64,000 nucleotides of DNA from Paraconexibacter algicola (GTDB taxonomy: Bacteria; Actinomycetota; Thermoleophilia; Solirubrobacterales; Solirubrobacteraceae): contig NZ_PYYB01000002.1 in the NCBI RefSeq assembly GCF_003044185.1, positions 124,001 to 188,000 on the forward strand. Direction: 5' to 3'. A program made the translations under genes and the position numbers. The notes beneath the pieces are model-generated. The model saw only the letters and a program-made list of their open reading frames with translations, made no database searches and was not told the DNA's origin. Positions 10,572 through 20,761 of this stretch are shown piece by piece. Numbering within the stretch: position 1 is the stretch's first letter; every line of letters starts with the position of its first letter.

Positions 10572-11660
10572 ATGGACGGCGACATCATCCTCGTCATCGT
10601 CATCGTCACGGCGCTGGCGTTCGACTTCACCAACGGCTTCCACGACACCGCCAACGTCGTGGCCACCGCGATCTCCACGCGCGCGGTCGCCCCCCGGGCC
10701 GCCGTCGCGTTCGCGGCGATCCTGAACTTCATCGGCGCGTTCCTGTCCCTCGAGGTCGCGGCGACCGTCGGCAAGGCGATCGTCGAGGCGGACGCGATCA
10801 CCCCGACGATCGTGTTCGCCGGCCTCGTCGGCGCGATCGCGTGGAACATCGCGACCTGGTGGTTCGGGCTGCCGTCGAGCTCCTCCCACGCGCTGATCGG
10901 CGGCCTCGTCGGCGCCGCGTTCGCCGCGAAGGGCCCCGACGCGATCCTCGGCGAGGGGCTGCTCGGCAAGGTCGTCATCCCCGCGTTCGTCGCGCCGATC
11001 CTCGCGTTCCTCGTCGCCGGGCTGTCGATCCTGCTCGTCTACCGCATCGTCGGGCGGCTGCGGCCCGGCCCCGTGACCCGGGGCTTCAAGGCGGGCCAGC
11101 TGCTCTCCGGCGGTCTGCTCGCGCTCTCGCACGGCACCAACGACGCACAGAAGACGATGGGCATCATCACGCTCGCGCTGGTCGCGCACGGGGACATCCC
11201 CGCCGACGACTTCCACGTGCCCTTCTGGGTGGTGTTCGCGAGCGCCAGCGCGATCGCGCTGGGCACCTACTCGGGCGGCTGGCGGATCATCAAGACGCTC
11301 GGCACGAAGATCATCAAGATGGACTCCGCCCAGGGCTTCTCCGCCCAGGGGGCCGGCGCCGCGGTGATCCTCGCCGCCTCGCACGCGGGCTACCCGCTGT
11401 CGACGACGCACACGATCTCCGGCGCGGTGATGGGCGCAGGCGCGGCGAAGCGGCTGAGCGCGGTGCGCTGGGGCGTCGCCGGGAACATGGTGCTCGCCTG
11501 GGTGCTGACGATCCCCGCGGCCGGCCTGATCGGCGGCGCCTCCTACGGGCTGACCGCGATCTTCGGCGACGGCGCGGTCGGTCCCGTGATCGTGATGACG
11601 CTGCTCGTCATCTCCCTGTCGGTGGTGTTCGCCAAGCGCGCGGAGGGCAAGCACGCATGA
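10572..11660 (+). CDS. pit: Low-affinity inorganic phosphate transporter
   Basis: A 362-residue integral membrane protein that imports phosphate driven by the ion gradient. The two Pit signature repeats are present: FDFTNGFHDTANVVAT (17-32) and LALSHGTNDAQKTMG (183-197), related by internal duplication, along with the serine-rich SSSSHALIGG loop (102-111) and its second copy STTHTISGAV. About ten hydrophobic segments can be counted. AAGGA precedes the ATG. Its stop overlaps the next gene (ATGA). The DUF47 protein upstream and small membrane protein downstream form one unit with it. Confidence 0.95.
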   Translation: MDGDIILVIVIVTALAFDFTNGFHDTANVVATAISTRAVAPRAAVAFAAILNFIGAFLSLEVAATVGKAIVEADAITPTIVFAGLVGAIAWNIATWWFGLPSSSSHALIGGLVGAAFAAKGPDAILGEGLLGKVVIPAFVAPILAFLVAGLSILLVYRIVGRLRPGPVTRGFKAGQLLSGGLLALSHGTNDAQKTMGIITLALVAHGDIPADDFHVPFWVVFASASAIALGTYSGGWRIIKTLGTKIIKMDSAQGFSAQGAGAAVILAASHAGYPLSTTHTISGAVMGAGAAKRLSAVRWGVAGNMVLAWVLTIPAAGLIGGASYGLTAIFGDGAVGPVIVMTLLVISLSVVFAKRAEGKHA

Positions 11661-11905
11661 CCCCGATGCTCGCGAAGATCGTCGACGTCGAGACGCTGTG
11701 GCAGACGATCTGGTCGGCGACGCTCACCGGCGTCGGCGTCTCGGTCGTCTTCGCCCTGACCGTGGTCGGCTTCACCCGCTGGACCGACCTGCGCCGCGAC
11801 GGGCGCACGGCGCCCGCCCTGGCGTACGGGCTGCTGGCGCTCGCCGGGGTCGCCGGGACCGCCGGGTCGATCGTCTACGCGATCGTCCTGATCACGTCGA
11901 AGTAG
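11657..11905 (+). CDS. Small two-helix membrane protein coupled to Pit
   Basis: An 82-residue protein with two predicted membrane helices (about 19-38, GVGVSVVFALTVVGFT, and 54-78, YGLLALAGVAGTAGSIVYAIVLI) joined by a charged loop (WTDLRRDGR). The ATG overlaps the pit stop codon, so translation is coupled, which argues for a working partner of the transporter. I do not recognise a named family. The composition matches its neighbours. Confidence 0.75.
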   Translation: MTPMLAKIVDVETLWQTIWSATLTGVGVSVVFALTVVGFTRWTDLRRDGRTAPALAYGLLALAGVAGTAGSIVYAIVLITSK

Positions 11906-11918
11906 CCCCGCCGGACGG

Positions 11919-14219
11919 TCAGGACCGGCCGCGCGGCGTGCGACCGTCACCGCGGATCGGCGGCGACGGGGACGCGTAGCGGCCGCGGACGGGCCGCTCC
12001 TGCGGCTCGCCGGCGTCCGGCGTCCCGGACGGGGTCGCCCCGCCGGCCGGGCCCGGGGCGGGCGCGTCGGGGCGGGCGGTGCGGCCGTCGCCCGCGGCGG
12101 CCTCCGCGGCGAGGATCCGCGCGACGCGCTCGGCGATCTCCTGCGCGGCCTCGTCGGTCTCGGGACCCTGGGTGCGCAGCCGGGACTGCACGGCGCCGAC
12201 CGTCGTGGCGTCCGCGATCCGCTTGTGCGCCTGGCGCAGCTCGGCCTGCACGGCGATCCCGAACTCGCGCAGCTGGTCGGTGGCGGCCTTGACCGCCTCC
12301 TGCATGGCCTGGCCCTCGGCGCTGGCCCGGTCGGCCTGCTGCACCGCCTCGCGCAGCAGCTGGTCGGCCTGCTGGCGGACCTCGCGCTGCGTCTCGCGCG
12401 CGTTGCGGCGCGCCTCGACGAGCTCGGTCTCGCCCTGGGCGCGCAGCTCCTGCGCGGTCTGCTCGGCCTCCGCGAGCAGGCGCTGCGCCTTGATCTGCGC
12501 CTCCTGCAGCACGCGGCGCTCGAGCTCGGCGGCGCGCTGCTCGCGTGACGCGTCGAAGCGGGCGCTCTCGGCCTTGGCCTCCTCGAGCTTCTGGGTCGCG
12601 GCCGCGCGGATGCGCTCGGCCTCCTGCTGGGCGGCGCTGCGCACGGCGGCGGCCTCCTGCTCGGCCTGCGCGCGCAGTCGGCCGGCGTCCTGGCGGTCGA
12701 CCGCCGCCTGCTCGCGCAGCTCGACGAGCTCCTGCTCGGCGGCGTCGCGGGCGGCCCGGAGCTCCTGCTCGACGGTGAGGCGGCGCGCCTCGAGCTGCGA
12801 CTCGGTCTCCCGGCGCAGCGCCTCCGCGTGCTCCTCGGCGGGCCGGCGCAGCTCGGCGACCTCCTGCTCGGCGTCGGCGCGCAGCTGGGCGATCTCCCGG
12901 TCGGCGCCGTCGCGCAGCGCGGCGAGCTCGCGCTCGGTGTCGCGGCGCAGGTCGGTCAGCTCCTGCTCGACCGCGGCGCGCGTGGCGGCGGACTCCTGGG
13001 CGGCGTGCACGCGCACGGCCTCGGCCTGGGTGCGCAGCGTCTCGGCCTGCTCGCGGGCCTCCTCGAGCTCGGCGCGTGCCTCCTGCAGATCGGCGTCGAG
13101 GCGGGCCGCGGCCTGCGCGGTCGTCTCCTGCGCCTCGGTGCGGGCGGCGTCGAGCATCGCGGCCGCACGGGATCGCGCGTCCTCCAGCGCGGTGGTGGCC
13201 TCGACGCGGGCGGCCTCGAGCAGCTCCTGCGCCTCGCGGCGCGCGTCGGGGACGGCCGTCTCGGCCTCGGCCCGGGCGGCGGCGACCTCGGCCTGCGCCT
13301 CGCGGCGCAGCGCGGCGAGCTCGTCGCGGACGGCGGCGACCTCGGCGTCGACGTCGGCGCGCAGCGCGGTCACCTCCTGCTCGGTGCGCTCGAGCGTCTG
13401 CGCGGTGTCGCGCTCGGCGCCCAGGCGCAGCTGCGCGGCGTCCTGCTCGGCGGCGGCACGGACGCTGGCGGCGGTGTGCTCGGCCTGCGCGATGATCGCG
13501 GCCGCGTCGCGCTCGGCGACCTCGCGGATGGCGGCGGCGCGGGCCCCGGCCTGGACCTGGAGGTCGTCGGCGGCGCGCCGCGCCTCCTCGGCGATCCCGG
13601 CCGCCTCGGCACGGCGGCGGGCCTCCTCCTCGGCCTCGGCGGCGAGACGGGCCTGCTCGGCGGCCTCGCGGCGCTCGGCCTCGGCACGCTCGGCGGCCTC
13701 GCGGGCGGCCTGCTCGGCGGCGGCGCGCTCGGCGGCCTCGCGCTCCTCGCGGGCGGCCTGCTCGGCGGCGAGGCGCTCCCGCTCCGCCGCGCGGGCGCGG
13801 GCGGCCTCGTCGGCGCGGCGGTCGGCTTCGGCCTGCTCGGCCGCGCGACGCTCGGCGTCGGCGCGACGCTGCTCCTCGGCGCGGCGCTCGTCGTCGGCGC
13901 GCCGCTGGGCCTCGGCGGCCTCCTCGTCGGCGCGGCGACGGGCGTCGGCCTGCTCCTGCTCGCGGCGGCGGGCGTCCTGTGCCGCGTGGTCGGCGCGGGC
14001 GCGATCATCGTCGCGGCGGCCGTTGGGCGCGGTGACCGGCGGGAGGTCGGAGACGAAGGTCCGGTGGCGGACCGTGAGCTCCCAGCCGGTGCCGCCCTCG
14101 GGCAGTTCGACCGACCGCTCGCGCACGACGTCGACCTTGCCGAACCGGACCGTGAGGTTGGCCAGCAGCGTCCCCCGATCCGGGCCGCTGACCGTGACGA
14201 GGTTGGCGTCGGAACCCAT
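11919..14219 (-). CDS. Long hendecad-repeat coiled-coil protein (Scy/FilP-like candidate)
   Basis: A 766-residue protein. Residues 1-65 form a compact non-coiled start (LVTVSGPDRGTLLANLTVRF and a WELTVRHRTF strand). From about 75 to 690 it is almost pure Ala, Glu, Arg and Gln. In the second half the pattern repeats every 11 residues (for example RDTERELAALR, DGADREIAQLR, ADAEQEVAELR), a hendecad coiled coil as in the Streptomyces cytoskeletal proteins Scy and FilP. A proline-glycine-rich tail ends it. There is no membrane helix. TACGTT lies 8 nt before the ATG. A filament or polar scaffold role is inference from the repeat; homology is untested. Confidence 0.85.
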   Translation of the reverse strand: MGSDANLVTVSGPDRGTLLANLTVRFGKVDVVRERSVELPEGGTGWELTVRHRTFVSDLPPVTAPNGRRDDDRARADHAAQDARRREQEQADARRRADEEAAEAQRRADDERRAEEQRRADAERRAAEQAEADRRADEAARARAAERERLAAEQAAREEREAAERAAAEQAAREAAERAEAERREAAEQARLAAEAEEEARRRAEAAGIAEEARRAADDLQVQAGARAAAIREVAERDAAAIIAQAEHTAASVRAAAEQDAAQLRLGAERDTAQTLERTEQEVTALRADVDAEVAAVRDELAALRREAQAEVAAARAEAETAVPDARREAQELLEAARVEATTALEDARSRAAAMLDAARTEAQETTAQAAARLDADLQEARAELEEAREQAETLRTQAEAVRVHAAQESAATRAAVEQELTDLRRDTERELAALRDGADREIAQLRADAEQEVAELRRPAEEHAEALRRETESQLEARRLTVEQELRAARDAAEQELVELREQAAVDRQDAGRLRAQAEQEAAAVRSAAQQEAERIRAAATQKLEEAKAESARFDASREQRAAELERRVLQEAQIKAQRLLAEAEQTAQELRAQGETELVEARRNARETQREVRQQADQLLREAVQQADRASAEGQAMQEAVKAATDQLREFGIAVQAELRQAHKRIADATTVGAVQSRLRTQGPETDEAAQEIAERVARILAAEAAAGDGRTARPDAPAPGPAGGATPSGTPDAGEPQERPVRGRYASPSPPIRGDGRTPRGRS

Positions 14220-14227
14220 GAACCCTG

Positions 14228-14233
14228 AACGTA
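14228..14233 (-). promoter_or_regulatory. -10 box TACGTT, leaderless promoter of the coiled-coil gene
   Basis: TACGTT on the minus strand, 8 nt before the ATG, inside the 47-bp gap after the acyltransferase gene. Confidence 0.5.
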
Positions 14234-14266
14234 CCGGACGCGGCCGTCGCGAAGGGGTCCGAACCC

Positions 14267-14848
14267 TCAGTTTGCGGAGGCTTCCACCGTCTTCAGGACC
14301 TTCGCGGGGGCGCCCGCCGCGATCGAGAACGGCGGCAGATCCGTGGTCACGACGCTGTTGGCGCCGATGACGCAGCGCTCCCCGATCGTGACGCCGCTGG
14401 TGATCACGACGTTCGCGCCGCACCAGACGTTGTCGCCGACGACGGTCGGCCCCTTGCTGGTGAAGCCCTGCCACGGCACGGGCTTCTCGAGGTCGTCGAA
14501 GCGGTGGTTGCCGTCGGTGACGAGGCAGCCGTTGGCGAACATGCAGTGGGCGCCGATCTCGACCCGGTCGACCGCCGCGACCTGCACCCCGAGGTTGAGG
14601 AAGGTGCCGGTCCCGATCGTGATCGTGCCGCTCCCGGTGAGCCACACCCCCGGCTCGAAGAGGACGTGCGGCCCGAGCGTCAGGCGCCCCTCGCGGAGCA
14701 TCGCCAGCGCCTCGCCGTGCAGCGGCCCCTTCGCGAAGCACTCCCGGCGCGCCAGCTCGGCGTGGAGCCGGGCGATGCGCCAGGGCAGGCGGTCCCCGCG
14801 GTAGTAGCGGAGCTTCTGCAGCCACAGCACGGCCTGCGCACGGGTCAT
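14267..14848 (-). CDS. Hexapeptide-repeat acyltransferase (left-handed beta helix)
   Basis: A 193-residue protein of the maltose/galactoside O-acetyltransferase-like group. The middle and C-terminal parts show hexapeptide turns (ITIGTGTFLNLGVQVAAVDRV and later VVGDNVWCGANVVITSGVTI read in six-residue steps), with a likely catalytic His in TDGNHRF. Such enzymes transfer acetyl or other acyl groups from CoA to sugars. ATG is preferred to the GTG one codon earlier because GAGG lies 8 nt before the ATG. It faces the divergent PlsC-type gene. The acceptor may be a surface sugar, which is a guess. Confidence 0.85.
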   Translation of the reverse strand: MTRAQAVLWLQKLRYYRGDRLPWRIARLHAELARRECFAKGPLHGEALAMLREGRLTLGPHVLFEPGVWLTGSGTITIGTGTFLNLGVQVAAVDRVEIGAHCMFANGCLVTDGNHRFDDLEKPVPWQGFTSKGPTVVGDNVWCGANVVITSGVTIGERCVIGANSVVTTDLPPFSIAAGAPAKVLKTVEASAN

Positions 14849-14897
14849 CACGGGAGCCTCGCAGACCCGCGGGAGGCGGTGGGGTCGGCCGGCGCGG

Positions 14898-14912: not shown

Positions 14913-15635
14913 GTGCTGCTGCGACTCTTCTCCTACGCCTACTGGGCGGTCATCGGGATCACCTGCCCGATCTTCTTCGTCGGGGCCGTCCTCGTCTGGC
15001 TGGTGACGCTGCCGTTCGACCGGCGCAAGGTCGTGCTGCACATGTACTCGTGCGCGTGGGCGCTGTTCTACGTGACGCTCAACCCGATCTGGCGGCTCGA
15101 CGTCCGTGGGCGGGAGCACCTGCCGTGGCGGGGCCCGGCGGTGATCGTCGCCAACCACGCGTCGCTGATCGACATCCTCGTCCTGTTCGGGCTGCTGCGC
15201 CCGTTCAAGTGGGTGTCCAAGGCGGAGAACTTCAAGATCCCGTTCGTCGGCTGGAACATGACGCTCAACGGCTACGTGCCGCTGGTGCGCGGCGACCGCG
15301 CGTCGGTGATCGACATGCTGGCCACCTGCTCGCGGCTGCTGCAGTGCGGCAACCCGGTGCTGTTCTTCCCCGAGGGGACGCGGTCGAAGGACGGACGGCT
15401 GCGCCCCTTCAAGGACGGAGCGTTCGAGCTGGCGATCCAGCACGGCGTGCCGCTGATCCCGGTCGCCGTGGACGGGACCGCGCAGGCGCTCCCCAAGCAC
15501 GGCATGGTCCTCGAGGAGCACGTCCGGGCGACGGTGCAGATTCTCGAGCCGATGGACCCGGCCGACTACGCCGACGTCGCCGCCCTGCGCGAGGCCACCC
15601 GCGAGCGGATCGCCACCGCGCTCGGCCAGCACTGA
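14913..15635 (+). CDS. plsC: 1-acyl-sn-glycerol-3-phosphate acyltransferase
   Basis: A 240-residue membrane-bound acyltransferase that makes phosphatidic acid from lysophosphatidic acid and acyl-CoA or acyl-ACP. It has an N-terminal hydrophobic hairpin (about 5-58), the catalytic HX4D motif in NHASLID (81-87) and the glycerol-phosphate-binding FFPEGTRS (151-158), then GVPLIPVAVDGT. The GTG start follows TAGGTT by 9 nt. It is convergent with uvrA across a 383-bp gene-free stretch. A PlsC-like enzyme acting on another lipid is possible. Confidence 0.9.
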   Translation: MLLRLFSYAYWAVIGITCPIFFVGAVLVWLVTLPFDRRKVVLHMYSCAWALFYVTLNPIWRLDVRGREHLPWRGPAVIVANHASLIDILVLFGLLRPFKWVSKAENFKIPFVGWNMTLNGYVPLVRGDRASVIDMLATCSRLLQCGNPVLFFPEGTRSKDGRLRPFKDGAFELAIQHGVPLIPVAVDGTAQALPKHGMVLEEHVRATVQILEPMDPADYADVAALREATRERIATALGQH

Positions 15636-19013: not shown

Positions 19014-19934
19014 ATGCGCACCGGTGTGCTGTCCGGCGTCGCCGCCTACGGGCTGTGGGGCCTCTTTCCCCTGTACTTCCCGCTCGTCGACCGTGCGGGC
19101 CCGGTCGAGCTGCTCGCCCACCGGATCGGCTGGTCGCTGCTGTTCGTCGGCGCGTTCCTGGCGCTCCGGCGGCAGCTCGGCCCGGTCGGGGCGCTGCTGC
19201 GGGACCGGCGGCGCCTGCGCCTGCTGACGCTCTCGGCGGTGATGATCGCCGGGAACTGGGGGCTCTACATCTACGCCGTGACGACCGACCGGGTGATCGA
19301 GGCGGCGCTCGGCTACTTCATCAACCCGCTGCTGAGCGTCGGTCTGGGGCTGGCGCTGTTCGGGGAGCGGCTGCGGCCGGCGCAGACGGCCGCCCTGGGG
19401 CTGGGCACCGTGGCGGTGGTCGTCCTCGCCGCCTTCTCCGCGACCGGGTTCCCGTGGATCGCGGTCAGCCTCGCGGTCCTCTTCGCCGGCTACGGGCTCG
19501 TGAAGAAGCTCGCGGACGTCGGGGCCGCGGAGGGCCTGATGGTGGAGACGCTCGTGCTCGCCGGGCCCGCCGCGCTGTTCCTCGGCGTGCTCGCCGCCCG
19601 GGGGGACGGCACGTTCACCACCGAGGGGGTCGGGCACGCGCTGCTGCTGGTGGCGGCCGGGCCCGTGACGGCGATCCCGCTCGTGCTGTTCTCGGCCTGC
19701 GTGACCCGGGTGCCGCTGTCGACGGTCGGGCTGCTGCAGTACCTCGCCCCCGTCCTGCAGTTCCTGATCGGCTGGCTGGTCGCCGGGGAGACGATGCCGG
19801 CGGCCCGCTGGGCGGGCTTCGCGCTCGTGTGGACGGCGCTGGTGGTGCTCAGCGCGGACGCGCTGCGGGCGTCGGCCGCCGGGCGCCGAGCGGCGACCAG
19901 CGGCGACGCGGAGCCTCAGCCGATGGTGGCGTAG
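19014..19934 (+). CDS. rarD: RarD-like EamA-family exporter
   Basis: A 306-residue membrane protein of the drug/metabolite transporter superfamily. It has ten hydrophobic segments and the RarD start ([22 protein letters not shown]), followed by [12 protein letters not shown] and [26 protein letters not shown], read as the first EamA half. The substrate is unknown. The ATG is chosen because it begins the first membrane helix; an upstream in-frame ATG would add a non-hydrophobic lead-in. No Shine-Dalgarno sequence is seen. Its 3' end overlaps the convergent DivIVA-family gene by 19 bp. Confidence 0.85.
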
Positions 19935-20761
19935 ACCTCGTCGAGCAGCGCGGCCCGGTCGGCGAGGTCGAAGTTCTCGCTGAGGTATGTGTCGGTCTCC
20001 TCGCGGCTGGAGCCGTTGAGCGCCATGTTCAGCGCGATCAGCCGGGCGCCCTCGACGTCCCCGCCCTCGGCGGGTGCGGCGTCGGCCTTCGGGGCCTCGG
20101 CGGGAGCCGCCGTCTCGGTGGAGGCGAACAGGCCGGGCGCCTCCTCGGCGGCCGCGGGCTCCTCGACGGGCGCGGCCTCCGGCTCGGCCGCCGCGGCGGC
20201 GGGCTCGGGCTCCGGGTCGGCCGCGACCGGTGCGGGCGCCGGGACCGGCGGCAGCGGCTCCACCGTGGAGCCGGCGGCCCCGTAGAGCTCGCCCATGTTG
20301 CCCTGCAGCAGCGTGAGGTCCGCGTTGAGCCGGTTGGCCCCGGTGCGCAGGCTCTCGATCAGGGCGCCCAGCTCGCTCTCCATCGCGTCGACCCGCTGCA
20401 GCATCAGCTGCGTGGACTCCGCGACCTTGCCGACGTGCTCGGCGCTCTTGGCGACCGCGTCGTCGCGGGTGCCCTGCGCGTCGCTCTGCGCCTCGGCGCG
20501 GATGCGGGCGGCCTCGTCCTGCGCGGCAGCCTCGATGGCGGCGGCGCTGGACTCGGCGGCCTCGACGATCGAGCGGACCTGCTCGGACGCGGCGAGCGCC
20601 AGCGACGCGGCGCCGGCGGACGCGGGAGCGCCCTTGGCGCGCTTCAGCTGCTCGACCTCGGCGCTGATCGCCGCGAGGTGCGCGTCGACGGCCTCGGGCT
20701 CGTAGCCGCGGCGGCCGATGGGGAAGTCCTTCTTCTCGATGGACTGCGGGTCCAGTGCCAA
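19916..20761 (-). CDS. DivIVA-domain protein with acidic linker and C-terminal domain
   Basis: A 281-residue protein. Residues 12-35 (DFPIGRRGYEPEAVDAHL region) form the DivIVA lipid-binding start, followed by an Ala/Glu-rich coiled coil to about 155. A linker of some 75 residues rich in Pro, Ala and Glu leads to a small helical C-terminal domain (RLIALNMALNGSSREETDTYL) with a pattern suited to protein binding. DivIVA proteins gather at curved membrane and organise growth or division. The start is TTG, preceded by GAAGAAGG; a TAGGCT promoter-like hexamer lies about 45 nt upstream. Whether this is the main DivIVA (Wag31) or a secondary one is open. Confidence 0.85.
   Translation of the reverse strand: MALDPQSIEKKDFPIGRRGYEPEAVDAHLAAISAEVEQLKRAKGAPASAGAASLALAASEQVRSIVEAAESSAAAIEAAAQDEAARIRAEAQSDAQGTRDDAVAKSAEHVGKVAESTQLMLQRVDAMESELGALIESLRTGANRLNADLTLLQGNMGELYGAAGSTVEPLPPVPAPAPVAADPEPEPAAAAAEPEAAPVEEPAAAEEAPGLFASTETAAPAEAPKADAAPAEGGDVEGARLIALNMALNGSSREETDTYLSENFDLADRAALLDEVYATIG

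What the first reader, a model, noticed from the sequence alone, without database searches (positions are those of the whole stretch)
11919..14219. 766-residue hendecad coiled coil: candidate cytoskeletal filament protein
The second half of the protein keeps an 11-residue periodicity over dozens of turns (RDTERELAALR, DGADREIAQLR, ADAEQEVAELR, DAAEQELVELR and so on). Hendecad repeats are characteristic of Streptomyces Scy and FilP, which build polar scaffolds with DivIVA. A DivIVA-domain protein is encoded only 5.7 kb away. The N-terminal 65 residues are a separate small fold that I do not recognise. If the organism is not a hyphal actinomycete, such a filament would be unexpected.
Basis: partly seen in the sequence, partly recalled or inferred. 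Interest (0 to 1): 0.62.

Follow-up and report, generated by a model that had tools for sequence, protein, structure and literature searches.

The report
Hendecad coiled-coil rod with βαββ head
A soil actinobacterium that is not a Streptomyces encodes a long rod-shaped protein, probably a scaffold or tether inside the cell, built from dozens of 11-residue repeats; its rod resembles that of the Streptomyces polarity scaffolds Scy and FilP, but it lacks their defining head, so it belongs to a small, lineage-specific family of its own.

Summary
The ORF at 11919-14219 (-) encodes 766 residues. Residues 216-690 carry an 11-residue repeat (lag-11 self-similarity z = 10.7) with a hydrophobic period of 3.641, never reached in 500 shuffles, and no heptad peak. 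The parse gives 32 hendecads with interspersed heptads, an Ala/Leu core and oppositely charged flanks, as in a parallel coiled coil. Residues 82-215 look like a charged single helix. Residues 7-52 are predicted as a βαββ fold with good confidence.

Scy and FilP share a DivIVA-like head (motif RGYDxxEVD); this protein and all relatives found lack it. The window's own DivIVA protein has that motif, but divIVA lies in the same gene block in relatives that lack the coiled-coil gene, so the 5.7 kb spacing is no evidence of a link. The family is confined to three of 25 genera of one family (Solirubrobacteraceae neighbourhood). Head, hendecad rod and C-terminal segment are kept; rod length and spacer vary. 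Best reading: a lineage-specific cytoplasmic scaffold or tether whose rod is like that of Scy/FilP but which is not one of them. Filament formation and polar location remain untested.

The parts
11919..14219 (-). whole coiled-coil gene, 766 aa, ATG start at 14219, stop included
   Evidence: homologs in the same frame
14055..14219 (-). N-terminal head, residues 1-55: strand 7-12, helix 15-26, strand 29-38, strand 44-52; 22 invariant columns in 9 sequences
   Evidence: weak ACT-domain resemblance
13575..13976 (-). residues 82-215: charged Ala/Arg/Glu helix with i,i+4 opposite-charge pairs (single-alpha-helix-like spacer), no hydrophobic period
12150..13574 (-). residues 216-690: hendecad coiled-coil rod (32 hendecads plus heptads)
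12108..12371 (-). residues 617-704: conserved C-terminal helical segment (overlaps the end of the rod)
11922..12107 (-). residues 705-766: Pro/Gly/Arg-rich, predicted disordered, not conserved
14267..14851 (-). hexapeptide-repeat acyltransferase, same strand, 47 bp upstream (possible co-transcription); neighbour, not part of the rod
19916..20761 (-). DivIVA-domain protein with motif RGYEPEAVD and a short coil with 7- and 11-residue repeats; the only PF05103 match found in the genome; neighbour by older synteny

Best explanation
A cytoplasmic, elongated scaffold or tether of four modules: a small beta-alpha-beta-beta head; a stiff spacer; a nearly untwisted, parallel hendecad coiled-coil rod of about 470 residues (about 70 nm at 0.15 nm per residue); and a conserved helical C-terminal end. 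Shown from sequence: the hendecad period, the Ala/Leu core with Arg on one flank and Glu on the other, the conserved head and C-terminal end, variable rod length. Inferred: two chains pair side by side in parallel (E-R flanks attract each other only in parallel), the head and the C-terminal end bind partners or other copies, and the protein serves as a lineage-specific structural element that works like Scy or FilP without descending from them. Whether it goes on to assemble into filaments is open (about 1 in 3).
For: Hendecad period in residues 216-690; lag 11 is the top lag in six full-length relatives with rods of different length (360-589 aa proteins). Hendecad core: position 0 Ala 66%, position 4 Ala 44%/Leu 28%, position 7 Leu 44%; a small residue, notably Ala, at the core position that points to the axis is what hendecad dimers are reported to need (PMC9858780). 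Flank charges with a charge-blind register: position 8 net +0.69, position 3 net -0.38; same signs in G003, G007, G014, G062, G066. Head and C-terminal segment are conserved while the middle varies. The spacer is modular: charged single helix here (i,i+4 opposite charges 36 vs 19.6 +/- 3.5, like charges 5 vs 20), heptads in G003 and G007 (lag 7 z 5.3 and 4.2, lag 14 z 5.3 and 7.3), Pro-rich in the g8 genus. AlphaFold2 gives the head plus helices 82-267, 279-406, 414-507, 516-672. No Cys.
Against: No experiment; oligomer state, filament assembly and location could not be tested. The full-length model has low confidence (pLDDT 68, pTM 0.24, 3 sequences) and is a monomer. In G035, G062 and G066 the hydrophobic-only period peak is not significant although lag 11 is. 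The flank charge pattern is weak in G035.
Confidence: 0.6

Rival explanations
1. It is a divergent Scy or FilP orthologue acting with DivIVA at the pole.
For: Best NCBIfam match is the Scy model (E 7e-5, coil only); the same kind of hendecad-plus-heptad rod; DivIVA gene 5.7 kb away.
Against: 20.5 bits against a 1040-bit cut-off, in the coil only; no RGYDxxEVD motif in the protein or 8 relatives and no DivIVA Pfam match, a different head instead; the DivIVA neighbourhood exists without it; scy sits next to filP in known cases (PMC4255298), whereas here no second DivIVA-domain protein was found in the genome.
Confidence: 0.05
2. An amphipathic 11-mer protein of the LEA, phasin or apolipoprotein type: it coats membranes, lipid or storage granules, or protects on drying, rather than forming a coiled coil.
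For: Pfam Apolipoprotein E 1e-4 (22.5 bits, cut-off 90) and a phasin-related NCBIfam model E 0.0017, both below cut-off; two acyltransferase genes next door.
Against: Narrow core of three wheel positions with Leu, flanked by Arg on one side and Glu on the other, a pairing pattern rather than the basic flanks on both sides of lipid-binding helices (own knowledge); no LEA family match at E <= 1. AlphaFold2 gives long helices, which cannot tell the two apart.
Confidence: 0.13
3. A tether with a sensing head: the head is a shortened ACT-like ligand domain, and the rod only holds it at a distance from a partner bound by the C-terminal end; no scaffold or filament role.
For: The weak Pfam matches of the head are almost all ACT families (ACT_6 in 4 of 9 members, best E 0.06) and Foldseek's best matches include many ACT domains (E 0.06-0.4); G-x-D-R-x-x-L at the turn from strand 1 to helix 1 is invariant.
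Against: All ACT matches are below cut-off; profile comparison with two ACT sequences gave probability 0.5%; the second half of the ACT fold is missing; VIA-align ranks FlhF's FliG-binding domain (Z 5.2, rmsd 2.2, 47 aligned) and dodecins highest, all in the range of common arrangements.
Confidence: 0.18
4. The repeat is a by-product of high G+C codon bias (rich in Ala, Arg, Glu) without structural meaning.
For: The protein is 25.6% Ala, 15.4% Arg, 15.3% Glu; the window is 68-79% G+C; DNA lag-33 identity 0.515.
Against: Shuffles that keep composition never reach the observed period or parse score; the period, core and flank charges recur in relatives with different sequence.
Confidence: 0.02

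Closest known systems
Scy (Streptomyces polarity scaffold, NCBIfam NF041483)
   Same: Long Ala-rich hendecad rod; actinobacterial; no membrane segment
   Different: No DivIVA-like N-terminal motif; 766 aa instead of a 1293-position model; different head and C-terminal segment; not beside a filP-like gene
FilP (Streptomyces intermediate-filament-like protein)
   Same: Extended hendecad coiled coil with Ala-rich core (PMC9858780)
   Different: FilP carries the DivIVA-like motif; this protein does not
DivIVA of the same window (19916-20761)
   Same: Same organism, short coil with some 11-residue repetition
   Different: Has RGYEPEAVD, a DivIVA domain and a different conserved C-terminus; profile comparison matches only coil
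ACT_6 domain (PF13740)
   Same: Strand-helix-strand-strand order and the G-x-D-R-x-x-L turn resemble the head
   Different: Matches below every cut-off; lacks the last helix and strand

Membership tests
Scy/FilP | DivIVA-like N-terminal domain with motif RGYDxxEVD (PMC9858780) | tested here: not met
   no match to the motif in the window protein or 8 relatives; window DivIVA matches as positive control; no DivIVA Pfam match at E <= 1
Scy/FilP | extended hendecad coiled coil with Ala-rich core | tested here: met
Scy | score over the NCBIfam NF041483 cut-off (1040 bits) | tested here: not met
   20.5 bits; no match at E <= 0.01 in the whole genome
Scy | gene next to filP (PMC4255298) | tested here: not met
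   neighbours are a small protein and a hexapeptide acyltransferase; only one DivIVA-domain match in the genome
Scy/FilP | binds DivIVA and sits at the growing pole | not testable with these tools
   needs two-hybrid and microscopy
FilP / intermediate-filament-like proteins | self-assembly into filaments | not testable with these tools
   needs purified protein and electron microscopy
ACT domain | significant match to an ACT profile or fold | tested here: inconclusive
   best Pfam E 0.06, below cut-off; hhalign probability 0.5% with a two-sequence ACT profile; Foldseek E 0.06 at best
ACT domain | complete beta-alpha-beta-beta-alpha-beta fold | tested here: not met
   model has beta-alpha-beta-beta only, then disorder
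Group 3 LEA / apolipoprotein | match over the family cut-off | tested here: not met
   Apolipoprotein 22.5 bits against cut-off 90; no LEA match at E <= 1

The most novel reading that the evidence does not exclude
A new, lineage-restricted class of bacterial intermediate-filament-like protein in Solirubrobacteraceae, unrelated by descent to DivIVA, Scy and FilP, which evolved the same kind of hendecad rod on a different head and supports cell shape or polarity in simple actinobacteria.
Probability: 0.22. Interest if true: 0.55.

Novelty: new variant of a known kind. Interest (0 to 1): 0.36.

Why it matters
Hendecad coiled coils in actinobacteria are best known from the DivIVA-headed Scy/FilP group. 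Here the same kind of rod sits on an unrelated head in a deep-branching class. The head and the C-terminal end stay fixed while rod length and spacer type change between genera (single helix, heptads or Pro-rich linker), which makes the family a natural experiment on which part of such a scaffold matters. It also warns against calling every hendecad protein near divIVA a Scy relative.

Tried and rejected
Second copy of the head elsewhere in the genome: weak tblastn matches (E 0.06 and worse) read as unrelated proteins (MCE-like, HisF and others) or wrong frames. The phylum-level match G469 (22 bits) lies in an ORF that looks antisense to an unrelated gene and is taken as chance. Head against PDB sequences: nothing at E <= 10. 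Head against PHROGs: nothing. C-terminal segment against DivIVA: hhalign E 4e-4 but probability 34%, coil only, not taken as homology. A strict 51-residue repeat, as I remember it for Scy (hendecads plus a heptad): the average period agrees (51/14 = 3.643) and lag 102 is raised (z 5.9), but lag 51 (z 3.9) is not above lags 40 or 44, so it is not claimed. The full-protein genome search failed for technical reasons. Papers on Paraconexibacter morphology were not found in the library, so 'non-hyphal' rests on my own knowledge.

Full report
Observation. The minus-strand ORF 11919-14219 codes for 766 residues and is the true frame: codon-position GC is 0.887/0.548/0.969 and relatives align in this frame. 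Composition-preserving shuffles never reach the observed hydrophobic period of 3.641 in residues 216-690 (half-maximum 3.626-3.655), and self-similarity peaks at lags 11, 22, 33 and 44 (z 10.7, 7.7, 4.7, 4.8) but not at 7. A dynamic-programming parse finds 32 hendecads interrupted by heptads, scoring 127.6 against 56.7 +/- 5.0 in shuffles and 89.1 for heptads with stutters alone. The phase of a pure 11/3 wave drifts in steps along the rod, while a 51/14 wave stays roughly in phase.

Anatomy. Residues 7-52 are predicted as beta-alpha-beta-beta with block-mean pLDDT 87-93 over residues 11-50. Twenty-two columns are invariant in nine sequences, among them G12, D14, R15, L18 and L22. Residues 82-215 have no hydrophobic period but an excess of opposite charges at i+3 and i+4 (31 and 36 against about 20) and a shortage of like charges at i+4 (5 against 20), the mark of a single charged helix. 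The rod's consensus is about A-E-Q-E-(A/L)-A-A-L-R-A-E: Ala at the central core position, Leu beside it, Arg on one flank and Glu on the other. That is the pattern expected of a parallel coiled coil; the small central residue is what hendecad dimers are reported to need (PMC9858780). Residues 617-704 are conserved between genera; the tail after 705 is not.

Relatives. The genome is a 4.74 Mb assembly in the same genus as G007; G007's contig length (5,138,448) equals that of Paraconexibacter antarcticus, found by the scan of named genomes, whose other matches are Solirubrobacterales metagenome assemblies. The head occurs in 11 of 146 genomes and 3 of 25 genera of the family, in 2 of 128 genera in a sample of the class, and nowhere else convincing in a sample of the phylum. 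Six full-length relatives have 360-589 residues; lag 11 is the top lag in all six. Between head and hendecad rod they carry different spacers: heptads in G003 and G007 (lag 7 z 5.3 and 4.2), Pro/Ala-rich linkers in the g8 genus, the charged helix here.

Neighbourhood. In relatives the order panC-panD-panB, (DUF47-PiT-small protein), hexapeptide acyltransferase, uvrA, divIVA, mutY, uvrB is old; as far as the fetched stretches reach, it is found without the coiled-coil gene in other genera of the family and order. The coiled-coil gene sits at three places in that block: between the small protein and the acyltransferase (window), between acyltransferase and uvrA (g8), and between panB and DUF47 (G003, G007; G001 and G006 are partial but consistent), always on the strand of the acyltransferase. 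The proximity to divIVA therefore follows from a block that does not need this gene and says little about function.

Comparison. Scy and FilP share with DivIVA a head with motif RGYDxxEVD (PMC9858780). The window's DivIVA has it (RGYEPEAVD); the coiled-coil protein and its relatives do not. The Scy model gives 20.5 bits against a cut-off of 1040, and only one DivIVA-domain protein is found in the genome. It is therefore not filed as a Scy or FilP member, although its rod is built like theirs. The head resembles the first half of an ACT domain (weak Pfam matches in 4 of 9 members; Foldseek E 0.06 at best), but also FlhF's FliG-binding domain and dodecins (Z 4-5); a profile comparison was inconclusive. 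Four-element folds of this kind are too simple to decide.

Mechanism. Most likely two chains pair in parallel into a stiff rod about 70 nm long with heads at one end and conserved helical ends at the other, used as a scaffold or tether in the cytoplasm. The repeat pattern and conservation are shown from sequence; pairing, partners, filament assembly and location are inferred or unknown.

Noticed in passing
window 11919-14851; L060, L061, L062, L063, L064, L065: The coiled-coil gene occupies three different positions within one otherwise conserved gene block in sister lineages, always on the same strand; either the gene or the DUF47-PiT cassette has moved locally. The cassette itself is not detected in several relatives.
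   Followed up: partly
window 19916-20761: The DivIVA protein has a TTG start, a short coil with 7- and 11-residue repetition after the DivIVA domain, and a strongly conserved C-terminal segment (about EGARLIALNMALNG...ETDxYLxxNF) of unknown role in its relatives.
   Followed up: partly
window 14267-14851 and 14913-15635: A hexapeptide acyltransferase and a PlsC-type acyltransferase are encoded divergently next to the coiled-coil gene; a close relative of the first is present in 36 of 41 related genomes.
   Followed up: partly
window 11657-11905: Small protein following the PiT phosphate transporter, no Pfam family, conserved beside PiT in relatives at about 27-52% identity.
   Followed up: no
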